From an uncultured Ignavibacteria bacterium (GTDB lineage Bacteria; Bacteroidota; Ignavibacteria; SZUA-365), in the NCBI GenBank assembly GCA_913061095.1, contig CAJXVM010000036.1:1-32121 (forward strand): a stretch of 32,121 nucleotides of DNA, read 5' to 3'. The notes below the pieces were generated by a model, which was not told the DNA's origin, searched no databases, and saw only the letters and a program-made list of their open reading frames with translations. Position 1 is the stretch's first letter. Each line of letters opens with the position of its first letter. Below are positions 1 to 28,036 of the stretch, in pieces. The translations under genes were made by a program, and so were the position numbers.

Positions 1-349
1 GGACCACACGCTCACGCGTGTGGTTACCGCATGCCACCGACGGATGGCGCTAGCCGCACCCGTCAGGGTGTTGATGGGGGACGCACGCGTCGGACCACAC
101 GCTGACGCGTGTGGATACCGGATGCCGCCGACGGATGACGGTAGCCACACCCATGAGGGTGTGGATGGGGGACGCACGGGTCGGACCACACGCTGACGCG
201 TGTGGATACCGCATGCCGCCAACGGATGGCGCTCGCCACACCCGTCAGGGTGTGGATGGGATGGGCGTCCCGCGTTGGACCACACGCTCACGCGTGTGGT
301 TACCGCATGCCACCGACGGATGGCGCTAGCCACACCCGTGAGGGTGTGG
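1..349. repeat. Tandem array of four double-hairpin modules (period 91-94 bp)
   Basis: Four copies of a 70-bp module occur at 4-73, 95-164, 186-255 and 280-349. Each has hairpin A (arms CCACACGC/GCGTGTGG, 4-nt loop), a 30-bp conserved spacer and hairpin B (arms CCACACCC/GGGTGTGG, 4-nt loop). G-rich linkers of 21, 21 and 24 bp separate the copies. Copy 1 has a decayed B hairpin. Loops of A and B are reverse complements in copy 3 (TGAC/GTCA) and copy 4 (TCAC/GTGA), so the module is also an imperfect inverted repeat overall. The same family recurs at 2388, 4180, 8174 and, partially, 28011. The array lies upstream of acs; no gene is seen in it. REP/BIME-like behaviour is an inference. Confidence 0.9.
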
Positions 350-2387: not shown

Positions 2388-2483
2388 GCATGCCGCCAAC
2401 GGATGGCGCTAGCCACACCCGTGAGGGTGTGGTTGAGGTGGCACCCCGCGCCTGACCACACGCTCACGCGTGTGGTTACCGCA
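2388..2483. repeat. Repeat copy between convergent genes; probable bidirectional terminator
   Basis: The region holds half of the conserved spacer, then hairpin B (2413-2432, loop GTGA), a 23-bp linker and hairpin A (2456-2475, loop TCAC) with the first bases of the following spacer. It fills almost the whole gap between the convergent acs and T9SS-cargo genes. The TAA stop of the minus-strand gene (2478-2476) directly touches hairpin A and is made from the repeat's own TTACCGC flank. Termination is inferred from position and stem strength; there is no T-tract. Confidence 0.8.
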
Positions 2484-4179: not shown

Positions 4180-4272
4180 GTGTGGGTGGGGCACGCGTCG
4201 GACCACACGCTCACGCGTGTGGATACCGCACACCGCTAACGGATGACGGTAGCCACACCCGTAAGGGTGTGG
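4180..4272. repeat. Double-hairpin repeat copy in a divergent promoter region
   Basis: A complete 70-bp module (hairpin A 4203-4222 with loop TCAC, 30-bp spacer, hairpin B 4253-4272 with loop GTAA), preceded by a remnant of the G-rich linker. It sits between two divergent genes. Hairpin B ends only 12 nt before the chosen ATG of the AraC-type regulator, so it must be in that gene's 5' leader or promoter. Confidence 0.9.
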
Positions 4273-8173: not shown

Positions 8174-8432
8174 GTACACCCGTGAGGGTGTGGATGGGGT
8201 GGGGCGCTCGCGGGGAACCACACGCTTACGCGTGTGGCTACCGCATGCCGCCGACGGGTGGGGGCTCACGCCTGCCCCACACGCTCACGCGTGTGGCTAC
8301 CGCACGCCGCCGACGGATCGGGTGTGATCACGCGTGTGGCTACCGCATGCCGCCGACGGATCGGGTGTGATCACGCGTGTGGCTACCGCATGCCACCGAC
8401 GGGTGGGGTTAGCCACACCCGTGAGGGTGTGG
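8174..8432. repeat. Rearranged double-hairpin repeat cluster between convergent genes
   Basis: Contents in order: truncated hairpin B (8176-8191), linker, hairpin A (8218-8237, loop TTAC), a short spacer, hairpin A (8277-8296, loop TCAC), then two copies of a 43-bp unit starting at 8318 and 8361. In these units the left arm of A has been replaced by GGGTGTGATCA. Hairpin B (8413-8432, loop GTGA) closes the cluster. Junctions occur in the shared CCGACGG core, as expected from recombination between copies. It separates the TonB receptor gene from the convergent hemerythrin-like gene and probably terminates both. Confidence 0.85.
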
Positions 8433-28010: not shown

Positions 28011-28036
28011 CCCCACCCTCACGGGTGTGGTTAGCG
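28011..28036. repeat. Partial hairpin repeat, inverted orientation
   Basis: A hairpin with inner arms CACCC/GGGTG around loop TCAC, with one mismatch further out. It is followed by TTAGCGCAT, the inverted flank of hairpin B. It is the half-element of the 70-bp family, reversed relative to the other copies, between the divergent sigma-factor and cyclophilin genes. Confidence 0.65.

What the first reader, a model, noticed from the sequence alone, without database searches (positions are those of the whole stretch)
1..349. 70-bp module of two hairpins with complementary tetraloops and an exact 30-bp spacer
In five intact copies (four at 1-349, one at 4203-4272) hairpin A and hairpin B are always 30 bp apart. 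The loops are reverse complements in copies 3 (TGAC/GTCA) and 4 (TCAC/GTGA), so sequence changes in one loop are matched in the other. The module can fold as two hairpins with kissing loops or as one long stem. This suggests selection on structure or on symmetric recognition by a protein, beyond a simple REP element.
Basis: partly seen in the sequence, partly recalled or inferred. Interest (0 to 1): 0.66.

Follow-up and report, generated by a model that had tools for sequence, protein, structure and literature searches.

The report
REP doublets with an IS200-like transposase
The repeated hairpin pairs are a genome-specific family of REP (repetitive extragenic palindrome) doublets, present in about 260 copies and probably spread by a small IS200-like transposase that was not previously tied to such repeats; the complementary loops come simply from two copies of one element lying in opposite directions.

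Summary
The hairpin pairs and the 30-bp spacer are real. They belong to a tagged, oriented palindrome, GCGGTA(A/G)-CCMCACSC-GTVA-GSGTGKGG, with about 257 copies in this genome and none in 11 relatives of the same family. Hairpin A is this element on the minus strand and hairpin B is the same element on the plus strand. The module is therefore an inverted REP doublet (BIME/REPIN type) with tags inside. Genome-wide, its spacer is nearly always 29 or 30 bp.

The loop-loop covariation claim fails: loops match in 17 of 39 doublets against 15.9 by shuffling. The loops look complementary because the partners are inverted and only three loops are common. What does covary runs the other way: inverted neighbours almost never share a stem type (1 of 84, against 38 of 42 for direct neighbours). 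This makes the long stem unfavourable.

The likely mobilising enzyme is a 151-aa Y1 HUH protein (C16:102169-102621) flanked by 9 and 2 REP palindromes within 700 bp. It is a subclass 1.2 protein (Y---Q--HH), a group reported without REPs. Phylum-wide, 16 of 71 such genes sampled have one palindrome family on both sides, against 0 of 710 with shuffled flanks. Transposase activity itself is inferred, not shown.

The parts
4..23 (-). REP (hairpin A, copy 1), minus orientation, tag (as TTAC) on its right side
54..73 (+). REP (hairpin B, copy 1), degenerate stem, tag CTAG at 50-53
95..114 (-). REP (hairpin A, copy 2)
145..164 (+). REP (hairpin B, copy 2), tag GTAG, loop ATGA
186..205 (-). REP (hairpin A, copy 3), loop TGAC
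236..255 (+). REP (hairpin B, copy 3), loop GTCA
280..299 (-). REP (hairpin A, copy 4), loop TCAC
330..349 (+). REP (hairpin B, copy 4), loop GTGA
2413..2432 (+). REP between convergent genes; with the next one it forms a tags-outside doublet (23 bp)
2456..2475 (-). REP, partner of 2413-2432
4203..4222 (-). REP (hairpin A, copy 5), between divergent genes
4253..4272 (+). REP (hairpin B, copy 5), loop GTAA, tag GTAG
8174..8193 (+). degenerate REP directly after the stop codon of the TonB-receptor-like gene
8218..8237 (-). REP
8277..8296 (-). REP; half-copies of hairpin A with the following spacer recur at 8330-8361 and about 8373-8405
8413..8432 (+). REP
28011..28030 (-). isolated REP, tag (as TTAG) on its right side

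Best explanation
The 70-bp module is an inverted doublet of one REP element, GCGGTA(A/G)-CCMCACSC-GTVA-GSGTGKGG, with the two tags facing each other across 29-30 bp. The family has about 257 copies and is specific to this genome among those searched. Most likely it is a non-autonomous mobile element moved on single-stranded DNA by the small HUH-Y1 transposase at C16:102169-102621. That enzyme would read the tag and the asymmetric GTVA loop, as studied TnpA_REP enzymes do, and cut beside the hairpin. The fixed spacer would set how the two sites are presented to an enzyme expected to be dimeric. Tandem arrays such as 1-349 arise by later duplication of doublets. Partner stems are held different (mostly G-C vs C-G at base pair 7), so the doublet folds as two short hairpins rather than one long perfect palindrome that would be unstable. 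Shown: the element, tag, orientation, spacing, copy number, heterotypy, and the transposase flanked by the repeats. Inferred: mobility, recognition, and the reason for heterotypy.
For: Copy number: 129 forward and 128 reverse places, control pattern 0, and 0 places in 11 other genomes of the family. Orientation: with orientation set by the loop, 84 plus hairpins have the tag only on the left and none only on the right; 92 minus hairpins have it only on the right and 1 only on the left. The oriented 5' flank is G.83 C.75 G.81 G.61 T.87 A.96 (A/G). Spacing: 39 of 45 tags-inside doublets have 29 or 30 bp, while tags-outside pairs spread over 12-28 bp. Stems: base pairs 3 and 7 change on both sides (A-T/C-G, G-C/C-G). 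Transposase: PF01797 E 7.5e-24, DHIH and YIQNQEEHH motifs, flanked by 9 and 2 palindromes of the REP family within 700 bp. The second gene at C8 (52% identity) is flanked by its own TAG-CCCCGAC-GTSA-GTCGGGG palindromes, with 5 of 6 genomic places beside it. Phylum sample: 16 of 71 relatives have one palindrome family on both sides vs 0 of 710 shuffled. Own-genome baseline: 4 of 392 ORFs, the only one with at least 2 per side being the C8 tnpA. Heterotypy: 1 of 84 inverted vs 38 of 42 direct neighbours share a stem class. Loop and tag reading by TnpA_REP enzymes: PMC8266576.
Against: No transposition event, excision product or cleavage was observed. Only one genome carries the expanded family, so cognate status rests on proximity and co-occurrence. 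The genome also has two class 2 RAYT-like genes (C5 about 172.5 kb). In several relatives the palindromes stay local to the gene (G262, G151), which could equally be IS ends or regulatory hairpins. 55 of 71 relatives show no palindrome family on both sides at these settings.
Confidence: 0.72

Rival explanations
1. The REPs are ordinary GTAG REPs mobilised by one of the two class 2 RAYT-like proteins at C5 about 172.5 kb (L018); the C16 gene merely sits in a REP-rich spot.
For: The L018 175-aa protein passes NCBIfam REP_Tyr_transpos NF047646 (99.6 vs cut-off 80); GTAG-tagged REPs are classically paired with class 2 enzymes (PMC6006769).
Against: No REP of this family is listed beside these genes; the nearest listed place on C5 is 160909. 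Homologues (71% and 45% identity) stand side by side in G004 of the same genus, which has no such REPs, though that genome is 87% complete. The C16 gene has REPs close on both sides.
Confidence: 0.14
2. One reading: two hairpins with co-evolving loops that kiss, or a symmetric protein site selected on loop complementarity.
For: Loops complementary in copies 3 and 4.
Against: Genome-wide loop match equals shuffling for tags-inside (17 of 39 vs 15.9) and tags-outside pairs (19 of 43 vs 18.7). Inversion of one element with three common loop types explains the rest.
Confidence: 0.03
3. The repeats are kept mainly as cis elements (transcription end, mRNA stability or nucleoid/gyrase sites); mobility is historical.
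For: Strong bias to non-coding stretches: 36% fall inside predicted ORFs vs 87% of random points; several lie directly after a stop codon or between convergent genes (8174-8432, 2413-2475). Roles of this kind are discussed for REPs (PMC3733652).
Against: Absence from all other genus and family members searched, singletons, arrays and a divergent-promoter position fit a spreading element better than a conserved regulator. Not exclusive with the best explanation.
Confidence: 0.1

Closest known systems
GTAG-tagged REP families and their dimers (Di Nocera 2013, PMC3733652)
   Same: Tag at one foot of a short GC-rich palindrome, subfamilies with alternative paired stem bases, inverted dimers, 20-100 bp spacers, heterodimer preference in many families, intergenic location.
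   Different: Tag is mostly GTAA/GTAG/GTAT with CTAA/CTAG variants inside a longer GCGGTAR motif; tetraloop GTVA. The fixed spacer is in the tags-inside dimers, whereas that paper's rule of thumb gives conserved spacers to tags-outside (HH) dimers.
REPIN / BIME (Bertels and Rainey 2011, PMC3116915; E. coli y-z BIMEs)
   Same: Inverted REP doublet of near-fixed length, intergenic, clustered in tandem arrays; E. coli y-z pairs are likewise heterotypic (PMC8266576).
   Different: REPINs are drawn as one long hairpin; here two hairpins are favoured in 28 of 39 doublets.
REPtron with class 2 TnpA_REP/RAYT (PMC6006769)
   Same: Single gene flanked on both sides by the repeat family it presumably mobilises.
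   Different: The enzyme is subclass 1.2 (151 aa, Y---Q--HH), which that study tabulates with no associated repeats.
IS200/IS605 insertion sequences (IS608, ISDra2)
   Same: HUH-Y1 transposase, single-stranded hairpin recognition; nearest solved relatives are IS200-family transposases.
   Different: tnpA is single copy while the palindromes number about 257; no mobile tnpA-plus-ends unit seen in this genome.

Membership tests
REP (GTAG superfamily) | short palindrome in many intergenic copies | tested here: met
   129+128 places, control 0; intergenic bias
REP (GTAG superfamily) | unpaired GTAG-type tag at one foot | tested here: met
   GCGGTAR; T 0.87, A 0.96, last base A 0.48 / G 0.38 / T 0.13; the strict GTAG form is a minority, so this is a relaxed tag
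BIME/REPIN | two REPs in inverted orientation at characteristic spacing | tested here: met
   39 of 45 tags-inside doublets at 29-30 bp
BIME/REPIN | doublet folds as one long hairpin (REPIN sense) | tested here: inconclusive
   predicted long stem better in only 11 of 39 natural doublets, but the mean difference is small, -18.6 vs -21.9 kcal/mol
BIME/REPIN | doublet is mobile | not testable with these tools
   no reads or strain series available
REPtron | tyrosine transposase gene flanked by the REPs | tested here: met
   C16 tnpA with 9 upstream and 2 downstream palindromes of the family within 700 bp
class 2 RAYT / TnpA_REP (for the C16 protein) | passes the REP_Tyr_transpos model; Y---NP motif | tested here: not met
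   NF047646 21.8 vs cut-off 80; motif YIQNQEEHH
TnpA_Y1 subclass 1.2 | about 150 aa, DH[IV]H, Y---Q--HH | tested here: met
   151 aa, DHIH, YIQNQEEHH; definition from PMC6006769
IS200/IS605 insertion sequence | multi-copy unit of tnpA plus ends | tested here: not met
   two diverged tnpA genes (52% identity), each single copy

The most novel reading that the evidence does not exclude
Subclass 1.2 Y1 proteins are a separate lineage of REP-mobilising transposases in this phylum. Each would be paired with its own tagged palindrome family, ranging from repeats confined to the gene's flanks, through about ten dispersed copies, to full genome-wide expansion as here, showing steps from IS200 ends to REPs.
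Probability: 0.45. Interest if true: 0.65.

Novelty: new variant of a known kind. Interest (0 to 1): 0.45.

Why it matters
REP sequences are among the commonest repeats in bacteria, and how they arise from IS200-like transposons is open. A class 1 (IS200-side) enzyme with its own REP family, next to related genes whose palindromes have not spread, gives natural intermediates to test. The sharp contrast between inverted neighbours (almost never the same stem) and direct neighbours (nearly always the same stem) offers a quantitative handle on why REP dimers are heterodimers, which PMC3733652 left without an obvious explanation.

Tried and rejected
Loop-loop covariation: rejected by shuffling. 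Rfam families: no match in the window. Class 2 RAYT as cognate: weakened by location and by G004. Kissing loops as a function: no support. The first energy script gave meaningless long-stem values because the constraint removed all pairs; redone. The first palindrome-flank script missed the C16 gene through a letter-diversity filter; repaired. Gene-context classes rest on greedy longest ORFs and overcount 'inside ORF' for GC-rich palindromes. An earlier count gave 7 places for the C8 family; the correct count is 6.

Full report
What is in the window. Hairpins of the form CCACACSC-NNNN-GSGTGTGG occur at 18 places (up to 3 mismatches) against 0.61 expected. Modules A-30 bp-B lie at 4-73, 95-164, 186-255, 280-349 and 4203-4272. 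The four at the start repeat every 91-94 bp. No Rfam family matches. The window is the whole contig C36 of a 4.61-Mb, 42-contig genome. The array at its start shares a rare variant (CCGCACCC...GGGTGTTG) with the end of C14, so the assembly probably breaks inside it; C5 end and C15 start look alike in the same way.

One oriented element. In 2.37 Mb of the genome I found 233 hairpins. The loop is GTGA, GTCA or GTAA in one orientation, and TCAC, TGAC or TTAC in the other, in all but eight. A GTA(A/G)-like tag sits on the left of GTVA hairpins and on the right of the others: 84 plus hairpins tag-left, 92 minus hairpins tag-right, 1 contrary case; the rest have no recognisable tag or one on both sides. 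The oriented flank consensus is GCGGTA(A/G). Hairpin A is thus the minus-strand copy and hairpin B the plus-strand copy of one element. The tag, short GC-rich stem and alternative paired stem bases are the marks of GTAG-type REPs (PMC3733652).

Spacing. Tags-inside doublets have 29 bp (18 cases) or 30 bp (21), with six outliers. Tags-outside neighbours range from 12 to 28 bp. The nearly fixed spacer is therefore real and specific to one arrangement.

Loops do not covary. Loop identity between the partners of tags-inside doublets is 17 of 39 against 15.9 expected (p=0.41); one per array 11 of 23 against 10.6. Tags-outside pairs behave the same.

Stems do covary, inversely. Base pair 7 is G-C in one partner and C-G in the other in 32 of 39 tags-inside doublets (7 matches against 19.5 expected). 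Counting one per array, 3 matches of 23 against 11.4 (p=0.0006). Combining base pairs 3 and 7, inverted neighbours share the stem class in 1 of 84 cases and direct neighbours in 38 of 42; one per array 0 of 36 and 19 of 22, Fisher p=1.6e-12. Direct neighbours probably match because they come from tandem duplication, so they are a contrast and not a neutral null; the shuffle test makes the same point without them. Predicted DNA energies: two hairpins -21.9, long stem -18.6 kcal/mol on average, long stem better in 11 of 39. If the partner were an exact inverse copy, the long stem would win in 39 of 39 (-32.5). Heterodimer preference is known for other REP families and protection from SbcCD-type cleavage has been suggested (PMC3733652).

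Distribution. The pattern has 129 forward and 128 reverse places here and none in four other genomes of the genus or seven of the family. 36% fall inside greedily predicted ORFs against 87% of random points.

Transposase. The genome holds three PF01797 matches. C16:102169-102621 encodes 151 aa with DHIH and YIQNQEEHH. It passes the IS200/IS605 model NF033573 (67.7 vs cut-off 55) and fails the RAYT model NF047646 (21.8 vs 80). Its nearest solved relatives are IS200-family transposases. These motifs and the length fit TnpA_Y1 subclass 1.2, described as low copy, mostly in Cyanobacteria and Bacteroidetes, generally without IS200 end structures and tabulated with no REPs (PMC6006769). Here it stands within an array of this REP family. 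The 52% identical C8 gene has its own palindromes, TAG-CCCCGAC-GTSA-GTCGGGG, of which five of six genomic places flank it and one lies at C16:99388. The tag and loop are alike in both families while the stem differs.

Is that general? I examined 71 loci of this protein group (two own, 69 from the phylum; 70 with Y...Q..HH). In 16 the same palindrome family occurs on both sides within 700 bp; 0 of 710 with Markov-shuffled flanks. Among 392 own-genome ORFs of 350-700 bp, 4 score, and the only one with at least two per side is the C8 tnpA. The 71 are the best-scoring relatives, not a random sample, and shuffled flanks are a lenient null. The trait is patchy on the tree: 11 changes against 14.6 shuffled, 5 of 500 shuffles as low. 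Copy number differs: dispersed at about ten places in G163, 12 places in G332, confined to the gene's flanks in G262 and nearly so for one G151 gene.

Alternative enzyme. Two class 2-like genes lie together at C5 about 172.5 kb. Homologues of both lie in one locus of G004 (71%, 45%), where the REPs are absent. This argues against them but is not decisive.

Verdict. The observed doublets are REP doublets of the BIME/REPIN type. The complementary-loop argument is an effect of inversion. The new part is the link to a subclass 1.2 transposase, supported by position, co-occurrence and a phylum-wide sample; mobility and recognition remain to be shown at the bench.

Noticed in passing
window 1; G000 C14 end, C5 end, C15 start: Contig ends fall inside REP arrays and share array-specific variants (C14 end with C36 start, C5 end with C15 start), suggesting adjacency in the chromosome and arrays longer than assembled.
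   Followed up: partly
L018 1435-2718 (C5 about 172.5 kb): Two neighbouring class 2 RAYT-like genes without REPs of this family beside them; homologues lie in one locus of G004.
   Followed up: partly
L016 1349-1369 and 1944-1964: The C16 tnpA is also bracketed by one further hairpin type, GCCCGCCG...CGGCGGGC, just outside the gene on both sides; possibly the remains of its own IS200 ends.
   Followed up: no
L216 (G151), L213 (G163), L208 (G332): Palindromes beside related tnpA genes come in two or three stem types per locus, so heterotypy may be general.
   Followed up: no
G000 stretches L049-L168: Two other recurrent hairpin arms, GCCGAGCC (15) and ATGTCACC (14), may be terminators or a further repeat family.
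   Followed up: no
window 8330-8405: Truncated half-copies of hairpin A followed by the normal spacer repeat in tandem, as if doublets had been duplicated with deletions.
   Followed up: no
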